Source: Acorus gramineus | Taxonomy: Eukaryota; Streptophyta; Magnoliopsida; Acorales; Acoraceae | Direction of reading: 5' to 3' | DNA length: 64,000 nucleotides | NCBI GenBank assembly: GCA_030737835.1 | Contig: CM060855.1 | Location: 15,009,438-15,073,437, forward strand | Shown here: piece after piece, positions 17 through 56,420 of the stretch | How the letters are laid out: the number at the start of each line of letters is the position of its first letter | Position numbering within the stretch: position 1 is the stretch's first letter | The notes under the pieces: generated by a model | What the model was told of the DNA's origin: nothing | The model's input: the letters and a program-made list of their open reading frames with translations, nothing else | Databases searched by the model: none | Position numbers and translations under genes: made by a program

Positions 17-3000
17 CTTCCTAACTTTGATCAGTTCATTTTGCATCTGTGTCCTTGCTCGAGACTGCCGACGACGAATAATGCCATGGTACTGCTTAGC
101 ATTGACATAGATTGATCCATGTTCCGTCATATTCAGCGGTAACAACATTCGGCCATGCTTCATCATAGAAGAGGAAGGTATGGATCATAAAGCATACTTC
201 ATGAATTCAAATTAATCAGTACTATCTCAAAGACAAAGTTGAGTTCAAAACAATATCTAAACAAATTCTTTATACCTGGGTAATATTTGAGAATGGAAAC
301 AAATACTATATTTCTGATTTATGCTAATAATAAGTTACATAATATGTAATACAAAATTATCTTTGGTTGATAAACCTAACAACTCCTTTATGGTCCTGAA
401 TCAAAATATACGCGAGAGAGACTCAAATGAAAGTCCTGTAGCTCTGTGTTATATGCTCTCATTGATATACATTTCTGACTGGTGAACAAACAATCAGAAG
501 ATTTCTGAGAAGACTGATCCAACTACCACAGATAATTCATAAATTTATGTCCAACTCACATAACCACATTTTATACATCCAGTCATAAAAGCATACCGAT
601 ATATGCCTGTAAGAACATGCCTACATGTGCATACGGACAGATAGAGCAACAAGTTTATTTGCACAACAAAGAGGACTTGTAAGTAAATGCAATTTTTTGG
701 TAAAAATAAATAAAGAAAAAACATGCGCACAAGTCTAAAGCATACTACTAGAACATCTTACAAGCTATATTATTTGCAACATGCGAGAAAATAGGGAATG
801 TGGAAAAGATTTCAAAAAGTCACAATAGAACAGGGACACCATTGCTTTAGAGATCTGGACATATATGAAATGTTGGCATTGGAAGAGAGAAGGAAGACTA
901 ACCATCACATGAGGTCTATAAGTTGCAAACATGTCATGACATTGGTCACCACAAGGATAATTCACACAAATCTACAGTCATAAGCAGTGATTGATAAGAT
1001 ACAAGACAATATGAGCACCTGATCAAATTAGATGACCAATAATCATTCTAGTACAGTTAATTTGTTTTAAGGATTTAAAACTATACCATTGAATGACCAA
1101 GCACAGGATTAGAATGACCTTGGAATTCGTTGATTGAGGACAGCATAGCAATATTCGTAGCATGTTGCAAAGTCTTCTGCCCCTTGCTTGAATCCCTATG
1201 ATCTGAAACATGTCATTATTGTGTGGGTCTCTAACAGTTGATATCAAGACGTACATGCATATATTGACAGAAAGCGATCATCGTTGTACTAAACTCAACC
1301 CTAGTCTGAGAACATGTACAAAAAGTATCTCCAGGTACAATATCACTTAGTCCAGAAAAAAGATGGACATCAAGAAAACGATGATAACGGAATCCTTTAA
1401 TTCCATGTTCAGATCTATCCTTGATTGCAAAGAAGTGTAATAGAGTCTCAATGTCATCTCTGAAAAATTTCACATATTCATGTTTTTATAATTGCAACCT
1501 GCAAATGGATTTAACTCACTGGTTCATACACAATTAATTGACTTCAATAATGAGGTAAGATCAATATAGTAGTTTATTATTAAGTTGATTATATGTGAAA
1601 AATTCATAATCAGATTCCAAGGACTGGACCGAGGTTAACACTAGGATTCTTTGCAAAGTGATAGGAGAAGTTCAAATTTATGAATTTTAAAAACAATCCT
1701 AATATTCTACGTAATACATATATATATTTCAATGTCTGACAGCAAGTAAAAAATTCAAAAATAACAACCAATGACTGATTCACTGATAAAATTGAACACT
1801 GCATACTTGACATGGTATACCAAACATGATTATACTTTCATTTGTAATAATGTAATCACTGAAATGGAAAACCCGTTCAACAATTGAACTTCAATAAAGC
1901 ACATAACTTTCTCAAATACATATACAACCTACATCCAATTAGCATTCTCTTATTTATTTTACCAGGAGAAACAAGAATGAAAAAAGAATATTCTACCTAT
2001 AATGGATCGTTCAGAAGAGTTTCTTCAACCATTATACACCAAAGCTTATTAAAATGTTGGCACAAAGCATATGTTGGTGGCTTAAACAAATATACCATGC
2101 AAAATAAGCATGCCAAATGTTGCCATATGCCTTCAGTTTGCGACAAACAAATAATTTCATATCATAACAATCTGATAGTATATAGTATGAGTTACAACTT
2201 TAAATTTTCATCAGGAATAAAATTTATTATGTAAACAGATAATATGGTGTTATAGGAACACTTAAAAAGAGTTCTCTGAAACCTGGTGCACTTGTTAAAA
2301 ATCGGAAATATCTCCAGTGAAGGAGAGCTTCAGTTGGTGGAAAGACCTTCATCAGAAGGAACACTTGATGACCCTTAATATGCACCAAACATGATTGTGA
2401 TATGTTAAATGAATCAGCATTTGAAAAATTTTCTGAATAATGAACCAGAGTGCAGATTCACTCATAAAATCATATGGATGTGTTAGCAATCTTTGAACTG
2501 TAATTTGTCATTATTTCTCCTATTAAAGATCTATTGATCCACCTGCATAAGGATGTAATATAACCTCTTGATCATTATAACTACAACACCATACCCTATT
2601 ATACTCAAATGCCCGATTATATTATCGATTTCAATAAGACTTATTACTAATTTTCCCCCATAATAAAGAATTAGAACTTAAAAACAATATTACTCCCCAT
2701 GAAGGCATATAAATCTTGGCCAACTGTGATGATGACAGTCAGGGCACACAAGTACCATAATGTCAATGTAGAAATACAACTTATAAATGAACCCACTGGT
2801 TTGGTCATAAAGAACAAAGACATACTGTATTACTCCACATCCTTTTTTGCATTCTTGTTCTTCATGAACATATTAGTCATAGTTTTCCTTGTTTCATCAG
2901 GGGGAAAAAAAGAAAGAAGAAGAAAGCCATCAATATGTCAGATCACAAATAAAGCCTGGCATACTTGATCATTACAAATGATTTAAAAGAGGAAAAAATA

Positions 3001-10000: not shown

Positions 10001-11704
10001 ATTTTTTTTTGAAAAATGGTGTTCCCCAGGATTTGATTCCTTGACCTCTTTCATAGAGGTGGGAGGTGCTTGTTGACTTAACCAAAAATTGGTTCGCAGA
10101 GGGACCAATATTCTGGACAAAGAATCTTGCAATGCATAAGCTAGAACTGTTTTATTATGTTCAATATCTGTCCAAAATGATTCTCTCTCATCCTTTAAAT
10201 GCTACCAACATATGCATGCAAGTGGGGCATCCAAAAAAACAGCATACAACAAGTTCCTTTGCATTGTACAAGAAAGACTAACCATGCAAGCAGGAACTCA
10301 CCCCTCAGGCACTTCAGAAGCAAAATTTTCAAACAAAATCAGCACAAGAAAGGAATATGAAAATTTGTTGTCGAAATGCTATGCATAAGGATCAGTAAAG
10401 AGAGGGGAAGAGAGAACGTGTTAGGTTGGTGGCTTGGTGCTCACGCCTTATATATGACAGTAAAAAGCTAAGTGGTTCATAAAGAGCATGATATAGGGAT
10501 AAATATAGTGTGCAGGTATTCATTCTACTTCCAACATTATCATTAAGTCTCCATAAATCCCCAACAGTGGATAAAAATTTCTCCAAGCCCTAACCTTCAC
10601 TCACATTACTAATATATAAATCATTAAAGGAATTGCATGATTATAGGATTTGCCATGAAGCGACACTAAATATATACTATATTCCGGCAAATTCCACAAC
10701 TTCTTTCTTCCTAGAAGCATGAAAACATATTTTTTTTTCCAGCAGTATCAGGTTGGCTTTATGGATGTTGCTTTCCATTCCATAAATGCAAAATATTCAT
10801 CTGACATTCAAATTTATTTATGTTTTATACAACCTAAACTCCCAAGGCCAAAACTCTTTCCTGATTTTCTATTTCTTTCAGAACCATTAACCTGGATATT
10901 TTTTAATAATCCTATAATTTGTTACTTAATATAAACTCCTTCCCTAAACCAACTTCCAATTAACCCATCTTTCTTCACTTTGTTCCATACTTCCATGTAA
11001 TCCCAACCTACTTAAACATGGTTGTCAAAGTGCATTAAAGTGATCACTTCTCATATCTCCATCACCAGCATTCCTCTATTGAATATACCCCTCACAAATT
11101 ACTTCAAAAAAAATATACCCCTCACAATTCACATGTAACACCAAAACAAACTAAAAGTGTCCATCTATCAAATTCAATCGCGGATTTTTTTTATTAATCA
11201 ATTCAACATTTTGAATGAAACCCCACATACCCAGAGACCCCCAACTGCACATACATCAACTCAGAATCCAGAACCCAACAAGAAACTCAAAAAACTAAAC
11301 CAACCCAACAAAAAAAATCTCACCTTTTTCACAAAAAATCAATCCATCCCATCCAAAGATCAAACAAAGACGAATTCCAAGCAAGGGAAGGGGGTCTAAA
11401 AACTTACAGAAGGGTAGAGGGTGGTGTTGATGGTGAGGAGGGAAATCTCGTCGACCTTGGGCCTGAAGAGGGCGAACTGAGCGGACGAGGAGAGGCTGAG
11501 GCGACTGTCGCAGGGGGAGAGCTGAACGTTGTTGCCGTCGAAGAACGACTGCTTCGTCGAGAAAGCTATGCCGAAGCTGAACCCGTCGTCCTTCTGTATC
11601 TTCGTGTCCGCGCACGGTTCGTACACGTGGTTCGTGTCGTCCCCCACCACCGCAACCGTCATCACCATCGCCGCCAACAGGAGAACCGCCGTAATCACAC
11701 CCAT
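7063..11704 (-). CDS. EXPP1 / At3g44150-like secreted protein of unknown function
   Basis: Exons are 11704..11408, 7569..7462 and 7374..7063, all joined in phase 0, giving 238 residues. The ATG at 11704 opens a hydrophobic signal-type leader (MGVITAVLLLAAMVMTVAVV). The body carries the family phrases FSFGIAFS, GGFMVAFAGRKYAARS, a Cys-rich CASCSGKSSFVCLNNQDC, and a C-terminus with SLYGLYSNLKDSLTGQYNKFF (key residues LKDSL and NKFF). This is a plant-wide family annotated as expp1 or as an uncharacterised protein. I recall its sequence pattern, but no biochemical role is known to me. The signal peptide and cysteines suggest a secreted or endomembrane protein. Intron 1 is 3.8 kb and holds a MITE. 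A short piece resembling exon 1 recurs at 46.2 kb. Confidence 0.9.
9022..9462. mobile_element. Mutator-type foldback MITE with 9-bp target duplication
   Basis: The 441-bp element starts GGGAAAAATC and ends GATTTTTCCC. Its two halves are extended inverted repeats (ACCCCCTG/CAGGGGGT, then matching inner stretches around TTTTACCCTC and GAGGGGTAAAA). It is flanked by perfect 9-bp direct repeats AAAAATCTA at 9013-9021 and 9463-9471. A 9-bp duplication with long terminal inverted repeats is the mark of Mutator-like transposition. It has no coding capacity, so it is non-autonomous. It sits in intron 1 of the EXPP1-like gene. A related element is at 19786-20286. Confidence 0.88.
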
Positions 11705-42386: not shown

Positions 42387-42914
42387 TCATGGAGATGGTC
42401 TAGAAATGGGTGGAGAAGGTAAGGGAGGGGAAACCATAGTTGGCAAGCGATGGACGACAACGGAGACTTTCACGCCTAGCTCGCAATAGTTCCCCAAACT
42501 ACATATGAAGTAATACACACCCACCTGTTCTAGGCTCACCGTGGCCGGCCCGCCCGAGAATTCCCTGAACGGATTCCCACCCTCACACGCGTCGTAGTCC
42601 ATCCTTGACACCTGCATTACGTCATAGAACCCCGTCTCGAACCCGAAAACTGTGTAAAACAAACATCATCAATGACTGAATTCGTCATCTATTCAACAAC
42701 CATCTATGTCAATGAATATATAGTTAGGTTTTTTACATAGAGAGTCTCCAGTCATGAAAGTTAGATTGTTGGACCAGTTGGTGTAGAAATCATTGTTGGG
42801 AGGGATGGACCATATTGAATCTCCCACCGTGTGTTGGTGAGCGCGAACGCATCCTATGATCACTACCAATAACAATAACAAAATCAAAAACCAAAACATG
42901 TATCTACTCTTCAT
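42387..42914 (-). CDS. Early nodulin-like phytocyanin without copper ligands
   Basis: Exons are 42914..42737 and 42649..42387, joined in phase 1 at the position usual for phytocyanins, giving 146 residues. The start ATG at 42914 leads into a secretion signal (FWFLILLLLLVVIIGCVRA). The domain has TVGDSIWSIP, FYTNWSNN, a typical F-x-TGDSLFF, and YYFICSLGNYCELGVKVSV. The type-I copper ligands are not all kept. The first His, normally in H-(N/D)-V, is Tyr (GFYDVMQV), and the second, normally GHC, is Tyr (NYC). So it is early nodulin-like rather than a copper plastocyanin. The tail after HRLPTMVSPP is Pro/Ser-rich and short, with no hydrophobic GPI signal. It is likely apoplastic. A 53-base piece of exon 1 recurs at 49171-49223. 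Confidence 0.92.
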
Positions 42915-44580: not shown

Positions 44581-45666
44581 ATGGATCAAGAAGAAGATGC
44601 AAGGAATGTGAGGCCATGGCAGGACCTTCCAGATGTCCTGCTTCAGAGAATATGCAACCAATTGAGCCTTGTTGAATCCATCCAATTTGGAGCTGTCTGC
44701 AAGGCCTGGAACACAGTCTCACAATGCTACCAACATGTCCACAACCATCATCCATGGCTTCAAATACCCACCATTCCATTAATGAAACATCTCAGCTCGA
44801 CAAACCACGAACAAGTACGCGATGTTTTCTGGCCAAAGAATTGCTTCACCAACAGATGCATAGGTGCCTCTCAAGGGTGCCTGATAATGAGAACATCGTC
44901 CGTCGATGAAGCTCAGCACCTCTACTTGTGGAACCCTTTCTCCAAATCCCCAATTATCGATCTTCCACCCGATCGCCCATTCATACAGATCATTCTGTCA
45001 TCCCCACCAAGGCCAGGGCGTGGTGGTTGCGTAGTGTTTGGATATCGTTTTCGCACTCCCAGGATCCTTTTTTGCAATCTTGGGGATAAAAACTGGACAT
45101 GCCTTGACAAGGAGCCAAAAAAACTCTTGACTGCAGTTGCATTTAAAGGGAAGTTTTATGCCTTGGACTATAGAGCAGATCTTTATGAAATAGACGTAGA
45201 TAGGCGTACATTTAAAGTATTAGAGGTATCTGGATCAATGAAAAGTGTTCATGATAAACTAGACATCAGGAACGCGACGACATTGTACCTTGTCGAGTCA
45301 TGTGGGGAGATTCTTACAGTTATCACAAGGACAGGGAATCCTAAAAAGGTGAGTGACTTTGTGATCTTTAGGTTGGACCTCCCCAACTTGGAGTGGGTGA
45401 AAATGGATGACCTTGGTGGTAGAGTGTTGTACTTGGGAGATTATAGCGCGATCTCATCACCATCAGTGTGTTGTTGTCGCAATGAAGATCGCTGCTACAA
45501 AACTACTGATAATAGGATTTTCTTTTCTTCAATGTGGTCTATGGCGAAGGCTGCTTGGCAAGTTTTTAACATGAAGGATGGGACTGTCGAGCTTGGATCA
45601 GGTTCCAAAATTATTGCCATGGACAGCCGTATTCAAAGAAATTGGATTTTGCCCAACTTTGAGTGA
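44581..45666 (+). CDS. F-box protein with KIB1-4 (DUF295) beta-propeller domain
   Basis: This single exon encodes 361 residues from MDQEED (another in-frame ATG is at 44566). The F-box is at about 11-48 (WQDLPDVLLQRICNQLSLVE, then VCKAWNTV) and binds SKP1 in SCF ubiquitin ligases. The rest is the KIB1-4 repeat domain, with SQGCLIM, YLWNPFSKSPIIDLPP, FKGKFYALDYRADLYEID, YLVESCGEILTV and IFRLDLPNLEWVKMDDLGG. In F-box/DUF295 proteins this propeller takes the substrate; KIB1 itself acts on GSK3-type kinases, but the substrate here is unknown. The ORF is intact. Its 3' flank holds a long T run and, at about 45911-45930, a poly-G run. Confidence 0.95.
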   Translation: MDQEEDARNVRPWQDLPDVLLQRICNQLSLVESIQFGAVCKAWNTVSQCYQHVHNHHPWLQIPTIPLMKHLSSTNHEQVRDVFWPKNCFTNRCIGASQGCLIMRTSSVDEAQHLYLWNPFSKSPIIDLPPDRPFIQIILSSPPRPGRGGCVVFGYRFRTPRILFCNLGDKNWTCLDKEPKKLLTAVAFKGKFYALDYRADLYEIDVDRRTFKVLEVSGSMKSVHDKLDIRNATTLYLVESCGEILTVITRTGNPKKVSDFVIFRLDLPNLEWVKMDDLGGRVLYLGDYSAISSPSVCCCRNEDRCYKTTDNRIFFSSMWSMAKAAWQVFNMKDGTVELGSGSKIIAMDSRIQRNWILPNFE

Positions 45667-46191
45667 TCAATTACTTCCTTCTTGAGATTCAATAAACTTT
45701 TCTTTTTCACAACAATAATATATTCTTCTTTGATCAAGCTTGTGTTTGAAATGTTTTTTTTTTTTTTTTTCCCTTTCATCAGCTCTATTGTTGGCTATTT
45801 TGCATATTTCCATGTAATTCATATGACCAACATCAAATATTTATATATAAGTTGGTGTTTTGTCCAATATATTGATGAACAAGCAAACTAGCTATTTATG
45901 CTCAATTTGTTGGGGGGGGGGGGGGGGGGGATTCTCCGAAAATGTGACAAAGATAAATGGTAGCTTATCTTATCCATGTTGTCACTCAATTAAATAATGA
46001 TGCCTATCTCCCAACATAATAAAACAGAGCAATATAATATTATTATTATGATACTAAAACCAACTAGCTAGTTGTGTGCTAATTCATTATGGTTATCTTG
46101 ATAGAGATCTACCTAGATAAGATCCATCTATTTTATAGGGTGGGGTGGGTTGGGGAAGGTTTCCATAAATGGAAGAGTTTTTTTTATTTTC

Positions 46192-46234
46192 GTGTTCTTA
46201 TGGCGGTTCTCCTGGCGGCGGCGATGGTAATGAC
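46192..46234 (+). pseudogene. Probable fragment of EXPP1-like exon 1
   Basis: These 43 bases match the EXPP1-like signal-peptide coding region (11700..11658, minus) at 37 positions, counted by eye, including GGCGGTTCTCCTG and GGCGGCGATGGT at the same spacing. It stands just before the NF-YA copy, in the order and orientation of the source genes. It is short and codon-biased, so chance similarity is possible. Confidence 0.5.
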
Positions 46235-46810
46235 TTAACCACCAGTATGTCTTTGTTCTTTATGACCAAAACCAGTGGGTTCATTAAGTTGTATGTGGTA
46301 GGATATCTCCTATCTTCTGCATTGACATTATAGTACTTGTTGTGTGCCCTGCCTATCATCATCACAGTTGGCCATGATTTAGATGCCTTCATGGGAGAAT
46401 AATATTGTTTTTAAGTTTTAATTTCTTTATTATGAGGGAAAATTAGTAATAAGTCTTATTGAAATCGATAATAATCGGGCATTTGATAATAATAGGGTAT
46501 GGTGTTGTAGTTATAAAGATCAAGAGGCTATATTACATCCTTATGCAAGTGTGTCAATAGATCTTTGATAGGAGAAGAATGACAAATTACAGTTCAGAGA
46601 TTTCTAACACATCCATATGATTTTATGAGTGAATCTGCACTCTGGTTCATTATTCAGAAAACTTTTCAAATGCTGATTCATTTAACATATCATAATCATG
46701 TTTAGTGCATATTAAGGGTCAGCAACAGTTCCTTCCGATAAAGGTCTTTCCACCAATTGGAGCTCTCCTTCACTGGAGATATTTCCAACTTTAACAAGTG
46801 CACCAGGTTT

Positions 46811-46894
46811 TAATCTTGTCTTCAGAATTGTACTACGACACTTCTTAATGAAATTGTGGTAGAAGGTCTACCTTTGACTAAAAAAAAAAAAAAA
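46811..46894 (+). mobile_element. 84-bp retro-insert with 18-bp target duplication
   Basis: The insert ends in a 16-17 base A run and is flanked by perfect repeats AACAAGTGCACCAGGTTT (46793-46810 and 46895-46912). The original NF-YA intron has one copy of this site (around 2288-2305). It is a very short SINE-like or 5'-truncated retro-insert made by LINE machinery. Confidence 0.88.
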
Positions 46895-47138
46895 AACAAG
46901 TGCACCAGGTTTCAGTGAACTTTTTTTAATTGTTCATATCACAGCATATTATCTGTTTACATAATAAATTTTATTCTTGATGAAAAGTTGAAGTTGTAAC
47001 TCATACGATATACTATCAGATTATCATGATATGAAATTATTTATGTCACAAACTGAAGGCATCTGGAAATTTTTGGCATTCTTATTTTGCATGGTATATT
47101 TGTTTAAGCCACCAACATATGCTTTGTGCCAACATTTT

Positions 47139-47379
47139 TTTTTGAGAGAATGATTGGCACTGGCCTTAATTTTAATCAAAGAAAGGTAATGCCCAAAGGG
47201 AAAAGCAGTACAAAGAAAAATCCATCACAAGACATGTAATAGAGGAGGGGTCTACTACAAGATCCCGGATCCAAAAAACCTAAGCAAAATGTGTGACTGC
47301 TCGATAACAAAGTTTTCCCCTTAGAAAACCAATCTTCCTCAGCTGATGCGCATGCCACTCCCCAAGCTTTGATATTCTT
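47139..47379 (-). mobile_element. 5'-truncated LINE 3' end with 16-bp target duplication
   Basis: Flanked by TTTGTGCCAACATTTT at 47123-47138 and 47380-47395. The original intron has the single site near 2051-2068. It begins with the complement of the A tail on the plus strand, so it is inserted in minus orientation. AAAGAAAGGTAATGCCCAAA near its start matches the 3' end of the LINE at 32.8 kb. Confidence 0.85.
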
Positions 47380-49170
47380 TTTGTGCCAACATTTTAATAA
47401 GCTTTGGTGTATAATGGTTGAAGAAACTCTTCTGAACGATCCATTGTAGTTAGAATATTCTTTTTCATTCTTGTTTCTTTTGGTAAAATAAATAAGAGAA
47501 TGCTAATTGAATGTAGGCTGTACATGTGGTGTCTGAAGAAGTTATGCGCTCTATTGAACTTTAATTGGTGAATGGGTTTTCCATTTCAGTGATTACATTC
47601 TTACAAATGAAAGCATAATCAAGTTTGGTATACCATGTCAAGTATGCAGTGTTCCATTTTACAGTGAATCAGCCATTGGTTGTTATATTTTAATTCTTTT
47701 ACTTGCTGTGAGACATTGAAATATACGTATTACGTTGAATATTAGGATTGTTTTTAAAATTCATAAATTTGAACTTCTTCTATCACTTTGCAAAGAATCC
47801 TGTTATACTTTGGCATCTAGTGTTAAACTCGGTCCAGTCCTTGGAATCTGATTATGAATTTTTCACATATAATCAACTTAATAATAAACTACTATATTGA
47901 TCTTACCTCATCATTGAAGTCAATTAATTGTGTATGAACCAGTAAGTTAAATCTATTTGCACGTTGCAATTATAAACATGAATGCATGAAATTTTTCAGA
48001 GATAGACATTTGGAGTATATTACACTTCTTGGCAATCAAGGATAGATCTGAACATGGAATTAAACGATTTTCTTATCATCATCTTCGTGATGTCCATCTT
48101 TTTTCTGAACAAAGTGAAATTGTACCTGGAGATACCTTTTTACATTTTCTCATACCTGGGTTGAGTTGAGTAGAACGATGAATGATTTCTGTCAACATAT
48201 GCAAGTATTTCTTGATATCAACTGTTAGAGACCCACACAACAGTGACATGTTTCAGATCATAGGGGTTCAAGCAAGGGGCAGAAGACTTTGCAACATGCT
48301 ATGAATATTGTTATGCTGTCAAGGTCACTCCTAATCCTGTGCTTGGTGACCAATGTCATGGCCTGTTTGCATCTTATAGACCTCATGAGATGGTTAGACT
48401 TCCTTCTCTCTTCCAAAGCCAACATTTCGTATATGCCCAGATCCCTAAAGCAATGGTGTCATCATTCTATTGTGACTTTTTTTAAATCTTTTCCACATTC
48501 TCTAGTTTCTCGCATGTTGCAAATAATATAGCTTGTAAGTAGTATGCTTTAGACTTGTGCACAAGTTTTTTCTATATTTATTTCTACCAAAAAAATTGCA
48601 CTTACTTACGAGTCCTTTTTGTTATGCGAATAAATTTGTTGCTCTATCTGTTTGTGTGCATATGTAGGCATGTTTTTACAAGCATTTGTCGGTATGCTTT
48701 TATGACTGGATGTATAAAATGTGGTTACATAAGTTGGACATAAATTTATGAATTACCTGTGGTAGTTGGATCAGTCTTCTCAGAAATCTTCTGATTGTTT
48801 GTTCACCAGTCAGAAATGCATATTGATGAGAGCACATAACACAGAGCTACGAGACTTTCATTTGAGTCTATCTTGCGTATATTTTGATTCAGAGTACCTT
48901 ACAGGAGTCGTTACATTTGATCAATTTCATCAACCAAAGATAATTCTGTATTACATAGCAGGTAACTTATTTTTAGCATAAATCAGAAATATTAGTATTT
49001 GTTTCCTTTCACAAACACTACCCAGGTATAAAAGATTTGTTTAGATATTGTTTTGAACTCAACTTTGTCTTTGAGATAGTACTGATTAATTTGAATTCAT
49101 GAAGCATGCTTTATGATCCATACCTTCCTCTTCTATGATGAAGCATGGCCGAATGTTGTTACCGCACAAT

Positions 49171-49223
49171 GAAATCGTTGTTGGGAGGGATGGACCATAT
49201 TGAATCCCCCACCGTGTGTTGGT
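49171..49223. pseudogene. Fragment of phytocyanin exon 1
   Basis: These 53 bases match 42786-42838 of the early nodulin-like gene at 51 positions, counted by eye (TTGTTGGGAGGGATGGACC, ACCGTGTGTTGGT). It directly follows the NF-YA copy with a 5-base spacer and lies in the plus orientation, antisense to the phytocyanin reading direction. Confidence 0.88.
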
Positions 49224-49503
49224 TCACACGAATATACTTTTATGTAAAATAAATGAATAATGAAATGTTCTTTTGTTGTTTTGTTAAGTAAATGTGACAC
49301 AGAGAAAAAAAGAGAAGTGATTCTTTTTTACTCATAAAGAAAGACATGACAAACATCTCACTACAACAATCTCACACGACAAATATCTTATTAAAACAAC
49401 CTCACATACCTCACAAAATAACTAAAACAAAACTTGAACAACCGGGTAAGAGAAACCTCAATTAAAACAACATCACATAACTTGAACAACTAGATAACAG
49501 AAA

Positions 49504-50172
49504 CCTCAATCATCTTCATACCGCGACATCATTACACAATCTTCCATGACTCCAGAACCACGCAATGTTGCATACTTATCTAATCTTTTAAAATCGTGCA
49601 TAAGATAGAAATTTCTTGTGATACCTTTCCTCCTCATCATCATTACTAACATGTTTATATTGTCATTAGGATCCACCCAGACCCAAGGATCAGTCAATGC
49701 GTCTCATTCCCAATAATCAATGATCCTCACTCTGAACTGGGTATGAGGATCACGTGGGAGTTCTAGAAGCCTTACACTTAGCTCCGTTCTACATGCATAA
49801 GCTCTAATAAAATTTTCGCCTCTCATCTTGACGTTGTATGCAAAAAGGGACTGACGGAATACTGGCACACCTATCATATTTTCTATAATCCTTCCGAGAG
49901 AGGAGACAAAATCAAAAGGATGTACCTCAAACATATGCTCTGGATACCCTTCTGAAGTAACAGTGACGCGAATATTTTCTCCATGTGCAGGTGTCCGATG
50001 GAGCTCAATTGTGGAGTGGTCGATAATTCCGTGATTGAGAAGTGTCCTTCCATCCTCCATCAACAAGGTACCGTGGATTGTTTAAGGAAATTCATTCAAG
50101 CGTAATATCGTCGTGTATAACATAGCTCTGCCCAAGGTAGACCATACCGATCACCTCAACATCAAAGACCAT
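49504..50172 (-). pseudogene. Ubiquitin-like two-domain gene, broken copy A
   Basis: It starts MVFDVEVIGMVYLGQSYV (ATG 50172). A ubiquitin-type segment follows, MEDGRTLLNHGIIDHSTIEL, closely parallel to [20 protein letters not shown] of ubiquitin. A second ubiquitin-like unit follows (VTVTSEGYPEHMFEVHPFDF, then GVPVFRQSLF). Breaks: about 35 bases encoding the first helix are missing after DDITLE compared with copy B, causing a shift and stop near 50092. A single TGA (49706-49704) also interrupts DYWE*DALTDPWVW where copy B has TGG. The rest reads on to MSRYEDD. There is a TATATAA box at about 50257-50264. The function of the intact parent is unknown; no Gly-Gly end is seen. Confidence 0.75.
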
Positions 50173-52242: not shown

Positions 52243-52904
52243 ATGGTCTTTGATGTTTATGTGATCCATATGATCTATCTTGGGCAGAGCTATGTTAACT
52301 TATACACAACGATATTACGCTTGTAATAGAGTTGAAGGAAGCTGTTAGGCGTTTAACATGAATAAATTTCTTGAAACATACATTCTAGTTAATTTGTTGA
52401 TGGAGGATAGAAGGACACTTCTCAATCACAAAATTATCGACCACTTCACAATTGAGCTCCAATCGGACGCATGCGTATGGAAAAAATATTCACTCACGGT
52501 TACTTCGGAAGGTTATCCAGTGCATATATTTAAGGTACATGCTTTTGATTTTGTATCCTCTCTTGAAAAAATTATAGATAGAATGATAAATGTGCCATTA
52601 TTCTGTCAGACCCTCTTCGAATGCAAAGTTGAGTTGAGAGATAAATTTTTTTATTAGATGTTATGCATGTAGAATGAAGTTAAGTGTAAGGCTTGTAGAA
52701 CTCCCACATGATTCTTCTTATCTATTTCAAAGTGTGAGGATCATTGATTATTACGAATGGGACACATTGGTTGATCCTTGGGTTTGGGTGGTTCCTAATG
52801 ATAATATAAACATGTTAGAAATGATGAGGAGGAGGAATGGTATCATAGATGGGAATTTTTTTATCTTACTCACAATTTTTAAAAATAAGATGGGTATTTT
52901 TTGA
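52243..52904 (+). pseudogene. Ubiquitin-like two-domain gene, broken copy B
   Basis: ATG 52243 reads MVFDVYVIHMIYLGQSYV. A four-base insertion relative to copy A then shifts the frame near 52292, where DITLVIELKEAVRRL is found in another frame. After a second shift the frame at about 52358 reads LLMEDRRTLLNHKIIDHFTI, SEGYPVHIFKVHAFDFVSSL and RDKFFY, then stops. KLSVRLVELPHDS through YYEWDTLVDPWVWV follows from 52674 in another frame. It keeps TGG where copy A has a stop. It is dead through several indels and is the left arm of an inverted pair with copy C. Confidence 0.75.
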
Positions 52905-53551
52905 AATACAACCTCAAATATTTTTGAAAATTGTGCGTCAAATAGAAATTTTCAGTGATGCCATTCCTACTCATCATCATTTCTTACATGTTAATATTAT
53001 CATTAGGATCCTACCAGACTCAAGCATCAACCAATGCGTCACATTCGAGATAATCAATAATCCTCACTCTGAACCGGGTGCGAGGATCACATGGGAGTTA
53101 TATGAGCCTTACACTTAACTTCATTTCACATGCATAAGATCTAATTAAAACTTTCGTCTCTCATCTCGACGTTATACGGAAAAAATGATTGAAAGAACAC
53201 TGGCACACCTATCATTTTATCTCTAATCCTTCCGAGAGAGGATACAAAATCAAAAGGATATACCTCAAATATATGCACCGGATAGCCTTCCGAAGTAACC
53301 GTGACGTGAATATTTTTTCCATACACGTCCGATTTGAAGCTCAATTGTGAAGTGGTCAGTAATTCTATGACTGAAAAATATTCTTCCATCCTTCATCAAA
53401 AAGTACACCGGGATAATAGAGACTGTTCCAGAAAATTCATTCCTGTTAAAAGCCTTATTTAAACTCTATTACATGTGTAATATCGTCGTGTATATATAAC
53501 ATAGCTCTGCCAAAGGTAGACCATATCGATCACCTCAACATCAAAGACCAT
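52905..53551 (-). pseudogene. Ubiquitin-like two-domain gene, broken copy C
   Basis: ATG 53551 reads MVFDVEVIDMVYLWQSYV, then the frame is lost at a TATATA-type insertion. The first ubiquitin-like unit is split between frames (TTTTTGATGAAGGATGG region). The second reads VTVTSEGYPVHIFEVYPFDF and GVPVFFQSFF. C-terminal sequence is degraded to about 52905. A conserved TATATAAACCCCCC promoter phrase (about 53662-53676) is shared with copy A. It lies tail to tail with copy B. Confidence 0.75.
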
Positions 53552-54220: not shown

Positions 54221-56019
54221 GGTTATACATCCCTAATTTCTCAACCAACTACATTTAAAGTTGACTGTAAAAAATATTCAAATAATAGCCTGTCCAAACG
54301 TACAATGACAAACGACAGACTGATCAATAGTCTCTCTATTTAACTTTTTCTTTTATTTAAAAAATGATTGTAGATCTATTTAAATTTCACATAACATTAA
54401 CAAAAGCATCTTGACAATTGAAATTTTTCTTTTTAATGGTTGTACATCTTCAGTTCTCCACACACCCATATTTAAAGTTGAGTATGAAAAAAAACTTTTT
54501 AAATAATGACATGTTTACATACGCTGGCGAACACAAATGGATCGATCAATGGCCTCTTTTTTTTTTACTTCCAACCCAATTTTCAATAAGTATATTATGA
54601 CGAACACAGACTAACAGAGACTCTAACAACGCTCTATTCAAATTGGAGTTGTCATGTAACGTACTATAGAATCATCATTTTTTTTTCTTCTTTAAAGCTC
54701 GCTTTTCACCCTCTAAAAGAGCTTTTTTTTTTCCATGAAAATAAAATCTCATAAACTCTTTGTGCTTGTATTGCGTGGAATGGATGTATGATAATGGATC
54801 ACATGGGAAATCAGATTCTCTGTACAGAGAAAGATGCTTTTAATAAAGTGGTTGAGGAAGGTTAGGACTGGGCCATTTAAAAGATACGAGAGAGGACGCA
54901 TTCAATATACGGGACAGAATTGTGGAAATTGAAGACCTTCATTAACTCCATCTGCAATAACTCGAAGCATGCTATTCAAATACCACTATCTCATATGAAT
55001 CTGTTTGCAAAATATCAGAAATTATTCAACATTTAAATATATGGAGTGTAAATAAAAATATTAATGTATCTAATCTAAAAAAATATATATATTACACATA
55101 TATTATAAAATTATATATATTTGTATTATATATTGTTCATGTTCATTATCTTGTATGATTTACTCACAATTATGAAAAATTAAAGAACCGATACATGTTT
55201 TTTTGTATGATCTTAAATAAATCCTAAAAAAATTTAATTTTCGTATTATGTCATCTAACTACTCTAACTTCCAAACATGCCACTTATTTGAAATAAATGT
55301 ATTTCATTCCTAATATATTAATATTAGTCTTTTCTTTTATTAATTTCTCAACCAACTACATTTAAAGTTGACTGTAAAAAATATTCAAATAATAGCCTGT
55401 CCAAACGTACAATGACAAACGACAGACTGATCAATAGTCTCTCTATTTAACTTTTTCTTTTTTTTAAAAAATGATTGTAGATCTATTTAAATTTCACATA
55501 ACATTAACAAAAGCATCTTGACAATTGAAATTTTTCTTTTTAATGGTTGTACATCTTCAGTTCTCCACACATAACATTAACGCTCTATTCAAATTGGAGT
55601 TGTCATGTAACGTACTATAGAATCATCATTTTTTTTTTCTTCTTTAAAGCTCGCTTTTCACCCTCTATATGAGCTTTTTTTTTTCCATGAAAATAAAATC
55701 TCATAAACTCTTTGTGCTTGTATTGCGTGGAATGGATGTATGAATAATGGATCACATGGGAAATCAGATTCTCTGTACAGAGAAAGATGCTTTTAATAAA
55801 GTGGTTGAGGAAGGTTAAGACTGGGCCATTTAAAAGATACGAGAGAGGACGCATTCAATATAGGGGACAGAATTGTGGAAATTGAAGAACCTCATTAACT
55901 CCATCTGCAATAACTCGAAGCATGCTATTCAAATACCACTATCTCATATGAATCTGTTTGCAAAATATCAGAAATTATTCAACATTTAAATATGGAGTGT
56001 AAATAAATATATCAATGTA

Positions 56020-56063
<44 letters not shown>

Positions 56064-56232
56064 CACATATATTATAAAATTATATATCTTTGTATTACAT
56101 ATTATTCATGTTCATTATCTTGTATGATTATTCACGATTATTAAAAATTAAAGAACTAATACATGTTTTTTTGTATGATCTTAAATAAATCCTAAAAAAT
56201 TTTAATTTTCGTATTATGTCATCTGACTACTC
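54221..56232. repeat. Direct duplication of about 1 kb
   Basis: The stretch 54221-55240 is repeated at about 55338-56232 with very few changes (TCAACCAACTACATTTAAAG, GAGAAAGATGCTTTTAATAA and GGATCACATGGGAAATCAGA appear in both). The second copy lacks about 125 bases after CTCCACACA. The first part also matches 51800-52090 inverted. An (AT)n run at about 56023-56060 lies in copy 2. No coding sequence is seen. Confidence 0.85.
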
Positions 56233-56234
56233 TA

Positions 56235-56420
56235 AGAGAATATGAGATGATAGATTAAATTTGTCACCGGCCCAAATACATTTTTTTTCATATTTTATCA
56301 TAAATTCTTCTAATATTAATATATTCCTAATATATTAATATTAGAAGAATTTATGATAGAATATGAATATTAATGTATTTGGGCCGGTGACAAATTTAAT
56401 CTATCATCTCATATTCTCTT
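56235..56420. mobile_element. Nearly perfect 186-bp hairpin MITE
   Basis: The sequence folds on itself end to end. AAGAGAATATGAGATGATAG at the left is exactly complementary to the right end, and TTTGTCACCGGCCCAAATAC pairs inside, with a centre near TATTAATATATTC. The unoccupied counterpart in the first duplicate (about 55262) runs from CTACTCTAA into different sequence, so the hairpin is placed at that join. Confidence 0.75.

What the first reader, a model, noticed from the sequence alone, without database searches (positions are those of the whole stretch)
46192..49223. Composite relic built from up to three genes of the same 50-kb locus
On the plus strand a probable EXPP1 exon-1 piece (43 bases, 37 matching) is followed by 2.9 kb of NF-YA (intron 2 to exon 5) and, 5 bases later, 53 bases of phytocyanin exon 1 (51 matching). 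The sources lie at 11.7, 0.1-2.8 and 42.8 kb. EXPP1 and NF-YA keep their relative order and orientation, inverted as a block, with about 8.8 kb missing between them. This fits an inverted duplication that later lost its middle, or replication-template switching; the phytocyanin piece looks like filler DNA at the join. Gene-fragment capture by a Helitron or Pack-MULE is an alternative, but I saw no element ends.
Basis: partly seen in the sequence, partly recalled or inferred. Interest (0 to 1): 0.8.

Follow-up and report, generated by a model that had tools for sequence, protein, structure and literature searches.

The report
Broken-DNA patch made from nearby genes
A three-kilobase stretch between two genes of a flowering-plant chromosome is a patchwork of dead copies of pieces of three genes lying within 50 kilobases, most simply explained as the scar of a chromosome break that was filled by copying neighbouring DNA.

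Summary
On the plus strand, 46202-46234 copies EXPP1 exon 1 (30/33), 46243-49165 copies NF-YA from intron 2 to exon 5 (introns 180/2337 substituted), and 49171-49223 copies phytocyanin exon 1 (51/53). A mismatch-tolerant genome scan found the EXPP1 piece only in EXPP1 and the relic; no second composite was found. New here: paralogues of the target site on C7 and C1 show that the flanks once lay close together (about 115-126 bases, up to about 170 depending on the exact left edge), that those bases are gone, and that no target duplication or transposon ends mark the edges. A duplicated (probably whole-genome) block on C5 keeps NF-YA and EXPP1 in their present order and orientation, so the relic is the derived copy. 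Best reading: a double-strand break with a small deletion, filled by copying from three donors on the same chromosome (complex filler DNA). Helitron or Pack-MULE capture is not supported; inverted duplication with later loss of the middle is not excluded. A clean, unusually large example of a known process.

The parts
46094..46169 (+). left flank of the target site (3' of an F-box/KIB1-4 gene); paralogous to C7 from 16235805
   Evidence: 92% over 53 bases (46094-46146), continuing to GGTTTCCATA
46170..46201 (+). weakly placed bases: possibly more left flank (TGTTCTT run shared with C7) or, from 46192, EXPP1
   Evidence: 46170-46199 alone scores no better against the C7 site than 84 of 2000 random stretches; 46192-46201 is 7/10 to either
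46202..46234 (+). copy of EXPP1 exon 1 (start of the coding region), sense strand
   Evidence: 30/33 to reverse complement of 11658-11690; only two places in the genome
46235..46242 (+). 8 unassigned bases at the EXPP1/NF-YA junction
46243..49165 (+). copy of NF-YA, intron 2 to exon 5, sense strand
   Evidence: reverse complement of 2827-136
46811..46894 (+). A-tailed retroposon-like insert, later than the relic; target duplication ACAAGTGCACCAGGTTT; 27 of the 48 matches listed are to this insert
47139..47379 (-). second retroposon-like insert, reverse orientation; target duplication TTTGTGCCAACATTTT; 9 of the 48 matches listed
49166..49170 (+). 5 unassigned bases (or decayed NF-YA) at the NF-YA/phytocyanin junction
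49171..49223 (+). copy of phytocyanin exon 1, antisense to that gene
   Evidence: 51/53 to 42786-42838; the only other place found in the genome
49224..49230 (+). 7 unassigned bases before the right flank
49231..49415 (+). right flank of the target site (3' region of a degenerate ubiquitin-like gene); paralogous to C1 from 2869942 and C7:16235710-16235658
   Evidence: both paralogous matches begin at the same base, 49231
136..2827 (-). donor: NF-YA gene, intron 2 to exon 5
   Evidence: NF-YA domain in Pfam
42786..42838 (+). donor: phytocyanin exon 1 (gene on minus strand)
   Evidence: plastocyanin-like domain in exon 2

Best explanation
The relic is complex filler DNA left by repair of one double-strand break in the spacer between an F-box gene and a ubiquitin-like pseudogene. 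At least about 115 bases were lost at the break. A free end then copied about 33 bases of EXPP1 exon 1, about 2.7 kb of NF-YA read in the same direction, and about 53 bases of phytocyanin exon 1, before joining the other end, with a few unassigned bases between the pieces. Shown: donor identity, order and orientation; the flanks' former nearness, by paralogues; no element ends or target duplication. Inferred: that it was one event, and that the enzymes were those of synthesis-dependent strand annealing (the kb-long copy) and/or polymerase-theta end joining (the short pieces).
For: Both flanks match one C7 stretch where they lie about 126 bases apart once a small C7 inversion is read through, and C1 gives 115. 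C1 and C7 resemble each other beyond the right edge at which both leave the window. No direct repeat above chance at the edges: longest 5 bases, while 708 of 2000 random pairs reach 5 or more; no inverted repeat of 6 bases or more. All three donors lie within 50 kb on the same chromosome; two extra donors falling within 50 kb by chance is about 6e-8. Divergences are compatible with one age: EXPP1 3/33, phytocyanin 2/53, NF-YA exon parts 8/164, introns 180/2337; none of the six pairwise tests is significant, lowest p 0.22. EXPP1 and NF-YA are in the same order and orientation in the C5 homeologue. In print, filler DNA is copied from sites near the break and may be a mosaic (PMC2686159, passages). 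In Arabidopsis, theta-mediated joining gives deletions with insertions templated near the break or from another nearby molecule (PMC10923293, passages).
Against: The maize fillers quoted are 1-131 bp; 2.7 kb from one donor is far longer. The empty site is inferred from diverged paralogues and not from an orthologue; C7 carries its own inversion, and C1 keeps only the inner part of the left flank, so C1 is tied to the window's left side through C7 alone. The exact left edge is uncertain: 46170-46199 alone is no better against the C7 site than 84 of 2000 random stretches, and if the flank ends at 46169 the loss rises to about 170 bases. Neutral relic exons beside constrained donor exons should give more changes on the relic; the counts are 4 and 3, too few to tell. 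One event and several of similar age cannot be separated.
Confidence: 0.72

Rival explanations
1. Two steps: a contiguous 11.6-kb stretch (EXPP1 exon 1 to NF-YA exon 5) was copied in inverted orientation into the break, and 8.8 kb of it was deleted later.
For: EXPP1 and NF-YA pieces keep the order and relative orientation of the donor, which independent template switches would give only about one time in four (inference).
Against: No remnant of 2.8-11.6 kb shows at or beside the relic in the self-comparison. It needs two events. A polymerase re-invading the same donor strand also keeps the order.
Confidence: 0.2
2. Gene-fragment capture by a transposon (Helitron, Pack-MULE or other terminal-inverted-repeat element).
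For: Such elements do gather gene fragments (PMC3445842, passages).
Against: At the edges set by the paralogous site there is no TC start, no CTRR end, no inverted repeat of 6 bases or more, no target duplication above chance, and target bases are lost. No second copy of the composite among the scored matches (40 of 76 candidates; 4 of 4) and the left flank has one other genome match (2 of 2). Donors are all local.
Confidence: 0.03
3. RNA-templated patch: cDNA of unspliced NF-YA and EXPP1 transcripts joined by reverse-transcriptase switching was used to fill the break.
For: Both the EXPP1 and the NF-YA piece are sense on one strand, and the EXPP1 piece lies near the start of its coding region.
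Against: Introns are kept, the phytocyanin piece is antisense, there is no A-tail or target duplication at the outer edges, and locality of donors is not expected.
Confidence: 0.03
4. Assembly artefact.
For: None found; reads were not available.
Against: The relic differs from its donor at 180 of 2337 intron sites, carries two retroposon-like inserts with their own target duplications, and keeps short stretches that the donor lost and the C5 homeologue resembles.
Confidence: 0.02

Closest known systems
Complex filler DNA at end-joining deletions in maize (R-r, p2/p1; PMC2686159, passages read)
   Same: Deletion at the break plus an inserted mosaic copied from sites near the break; few unassigned bases.
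   Different: Quoted maize fillers are 1-131 bp, against about 2.8 kb here; donors here lie about 3-46 kb from the break and belong to three genes.
Gap patching in cereals by synthesis-dependent strand annealing (Wicker, Buchmann and Keller 2010, Genome Res. 20:1229; not held; seen only as a reference in PMC4423477, passages)
   Same: Foreign segments, genes included, copied into a break as filler, giving non-colinear relics.
   Different: From recall, those patches usually have a single donor, often elsewhere; here three local donors.
Polymerase-theta templated insertions in Arabidopsis (PMC10923293, passages read)
   Same: Deletion with insertion, serial templates, microhomology; donors in the flanks or nearby molecules.
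   Different: Often map to the immediate flank or to T-DNA; the kilobase-long NF-YA tract is not what those passages describe.
Pack-MULEs and Helitrons
   Same: Chimeras of gene fragments with introns (general knowledge).
   Different: No ends, no target duplication, no family found, target bases lost.

Membership tests
Filler DNA at a repaired double-strand break | loss of target bases at the insertion site | tested here: met
   115 bases (C1), 126 (C7) between the flanks, by paralogues; up to about 170 if the left flank ends at 46169; no orthologous empty site available
Filler DNA at a repaired double-strand break | insert copied from other, usually nearby, places that remain in place | tested here: met
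   three donors within 50 kb; EXPP1 and NF-YA in the same order in the C5 homeologue; phytocyanin lies beyond the colinear part
Filler DNA at a repaired double-strand break | no target-site duplication or element ends | tested here: met
Filler DNA at a repaired double-strand break | microhomology or short untemplated bases at junctions | tested here: inconclusive
   8, 5 and 7 unassigned bases at three junctions, and by eye two shared bases (TT) at the left edge; decay blurs the exact points
Helitron | 5' TC and 3' CTRR ends, insertion between A and T without target loss | tested here: not met
   insert starts near ATGGCGG and ends CACACG; target bases lost; ends recalled, left edge uncertain by about 30 bases
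Pack-MULE | terminal inverted repeats and 9-bp target duplication | tested here: not met
   no inverted repeat of 6 bases or more (46191-46215 against 49201-49240), longest direct match 5
Inverted duplication by staggered breaks at an inversion | segment between the two copies inverted against an outgroup | tested here: not met
   C5 homeologue is colinear with window 1-41.4 kb in one orientation

The most novel reading that the evidence does not exclude
One repair event in a plant switched templates serially among three genes up to about 46 kb from the break, mixing a 2.7-kb tract with 33- and 53-base tracts, so that short theta-like and long strand-annealing copying happened in the same joint.
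Probability: 0.45. Interest if true: 0.45.

Novelty: new member of a known kind. Interest (0 to 1): 0.33.

Why it matters
Repair patches of this sort are a proposed source of stray gene fragments in plant genomes, and they are most easily recognised when a sister genome is at hand. Here the donors, the edges and the lost target bases can be read from one genome through paralogues, and the mixture of very short and kilobase-long tracts bears on which repair pathway makes large fillers.

Tried and rejected
Helitron and Pack-MULE ends: absent. Staggered-break inversion: rejected, because the C5 homeologue is colinear across the donor. A transposon with the flanks as its ends: rejected, because the two C7 matches are explained by a small inversion in C7 against C1 and the window. 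Clean intron loss in the relic: rejected, the missing 144 bases take exon ends with them. EXPP1 match as chance: rejected (the pattern was made from the two known copies, so the test is that no third place fits). My own first claim that the first 10 bases of the EXPP1 match are flank was withdrawn: 7/10 to either. Genome-wide look with the 76-base left junction returned only itself, since the tool's first look does not see so short a match. The fetched C5 stretch (120 kb) shows no match to the flanks at E 1e-4; colinearity with the window ends at about 41.4 kb. I saw no collection of sister plant genomes among the tools (genome search says this genome has no relatives here), so an orthologous empty site was not sought.

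Full report
What is there. The window lies at C9:15009438-15073437 of a 398.6-Mb assembly, evidently a flowering plant from its genes: an NF-YA gene with its CBFB_NFYA domain, a phytocyanin with a plastocyanin-like domain, and an F-box/KIB1-4 gene. The species was not identified.

NF-YA part. 46243-49165 is the reverse complement of 2827-136, that is NF-YA from intron 2 into exon 5. Exon limits were read by hand from the sequence. Two inserts interrupt it, both absent from the donor. One is an A-tailed element at about 46811-46894 with the target duplication ACAAGTGCACCAGGTTT. The other is a reversed element at about 47139-47379 with TTTGTGCCAACATTTT. Of the 48 genome matches listed, 27 are to the first insert and 9 to the second (40 of 76 candidates were scored, so these are minima). 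They are retroposon-like insertions that came after the copy. The relic also lacks 144 donor bases that cross exon 3, intron 3 and exon 4.

EXPP1 part. Its first 10 bases match EXPP1 and the C7 paralogue of the left flank equally, 7/10 each; with the flank they share an unbroken TGTTCTT. The firm core is 46202-46234, 30/33. A pattern made from both copies and scanned with up to 3 mismatches over the genome hits these two places and no other; the reversed control gives 0. The chance expectation of a 33-base match with at most 3 mismatches in this genome is about 1.6e-6 under uniform composition.

Phytocyanin part. 49171-49223 matches 42786-42838 at 51/53, and the genome search finds no other copy (4 of 4 candidates scored).

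The empty site. Genome searches with the flanks alone gave the key result. The left flank (query 45640-46192) has one other match in the genome, C7:16235805-16235857 (2 of 2 candidates scored). The right flank (query 49166-49360) has two besides the phytocyanin donor: C1 from 2869942 and C7:16235658-16235710, both starting at window base 49231. That both flanks hit the same 200 bases of C7 is unlikely to be chance. C1 and C7 continue to resemble each other beyond base 49231: 180 aligned columns at 78%, and a further 62 columns at 82% in inverted orientation. In C7 the piece with the left flank is inverted relative to C1 and to the window, a C7 inversion of about 146 bases. Reading through it, the flanks lie about 126 bases apart in C7, and 115 in C1. 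So the site once held bases that the composite has replaced.

Limits of that result. C1 keeps only the inner part of the left flank and shows no direct match to the window's left side; it is tied to it through C7. The flank is firm to about 46169. Its extension to 46199 is gapped: 46152-46199 scores 23.9 and only 2 of 2000 random C7 stretches reach that (random starts may include the site itself), while 46170-46199 alone is reached by 84 of 2000. If the flank ends at 46169, the lost stretch is about 170 bases in C7 and 46170-46191 is unassigned. In either case the flanks were once close and bases were lost. The searches for further copies of the site (and its repeats) did not complete.

Which copy is derived. 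C5:97113-125979 is colinear with window 1-41.4 kb in one orientation, and C5:82.8-97 kb with the 10 kb to the left. I read this as a whole-genome-duplication homeologue (inference). NF-YA and EXPP1 are therefore in their old places. In the 120 kb of C5 fetched, the flanks have no match at E 1e-4 and the relic matches only at the NF-YA gene itself; colinearity ends before the phytocyanin gene.

Age. Relic and donor introns differ at 180 of 2337 aligned sites (K2P 0.082); with C5 as outgroup 70 changes fall on the relic and 58 on the donor branch (p 0.33). C5 introns are diverged (842 of 2195 sites differ from both), so this polarity is noisy. Exon parts differ at 8 of 164, with 4 changes on the relic and 3 on the donor branch, too few to show the constraint expected on the donor. 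EXPP1 (3/33) and phytocyanin (2/53) are compatible with the same age: six pairwise Fisher tests, lowest p 0.22; pieces so short could hide a twofold difference. In two places (about 46295-46315 and 47801-47818) the relic keeps 17-20 bases that the donor has lost and that C5 has in recognisable form (the second seen by eye, the aligner placed it otherwise). No absolute date is given, since the species and its rate are unknown.

Mechanism. No direct repeat at the edges exceeds chance, there is no inverted repeat at the ends and no second copy was found; the target lost bases; all donors are local. This is the signature of filler DNA at a repaired break. Published passages describe such fillers as copied from nearby and sometimes as mosaics, 1-131 bp in the maize cases quoted (PMC2686159). 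Strand-annealing repair is described as able to introduce foreign segments, genes included (PMC4423477; PMC3445842). Theta-mediated joining in Arabidopsis gives templated insertions, sometimes from other nearby molecules (PMC10923293). The NF-YA tract seems long for theta and suits strand annealing; the EXPP1 and phytocyanin tracts suit theta. Which enzymes acted is inference.

What remains open. One event against two cannot be decided. EXPP1 and NF-YA keep donor order and orientation, which a later deletion of an 8.8-kb middle would also give. The paper searches made were for precedents; they were not a test of whether this locus has been described.

Noticed in passing
window 1-41400 and C5:97113-125979: Homeologous, probably whole-genome-duplication, block; colinearity stops at about 41.4 kb, and sequence right of the window (L036:5784-7145) matches C5:80.0-81.7 kb out of order, suggesting a rearrangement or a gene family.
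   Followed up: partly
49707-50081 (-), 52391-52693 (+), 53117-53335 (-): At least three copies of a ubiquitin-like gene, two with stop codons inside; relatives with longer open frames lie on C4, C10, C121 and C6. Pfam's ubiquitin match (21.3 bits) is below its cut-off of 25.4.
   Followed up: partly
C7:16235801-16235946: Small (about 146 bases) inversion relative to C1 and to the window.
   Followed up: yes
54234-55267 and 55341-56235: Local direct duplication, 93-99.6% identical; a near-perfect palindrome lies at about 56236-56420 (seen by eye).
   Followed up: no
46295-46315 and 47801-47818: The relic keeps short stretches that the NF-YA donor has lost but the C5 homeologue resembles: a fossil of the older intron (partly by eye).
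   Followed up: partly
46811-46894: Short A-tailed repeat with 27 partial copies among the 48 matches listed; possibly a 5'-truncated SINE.
   Followed up: no
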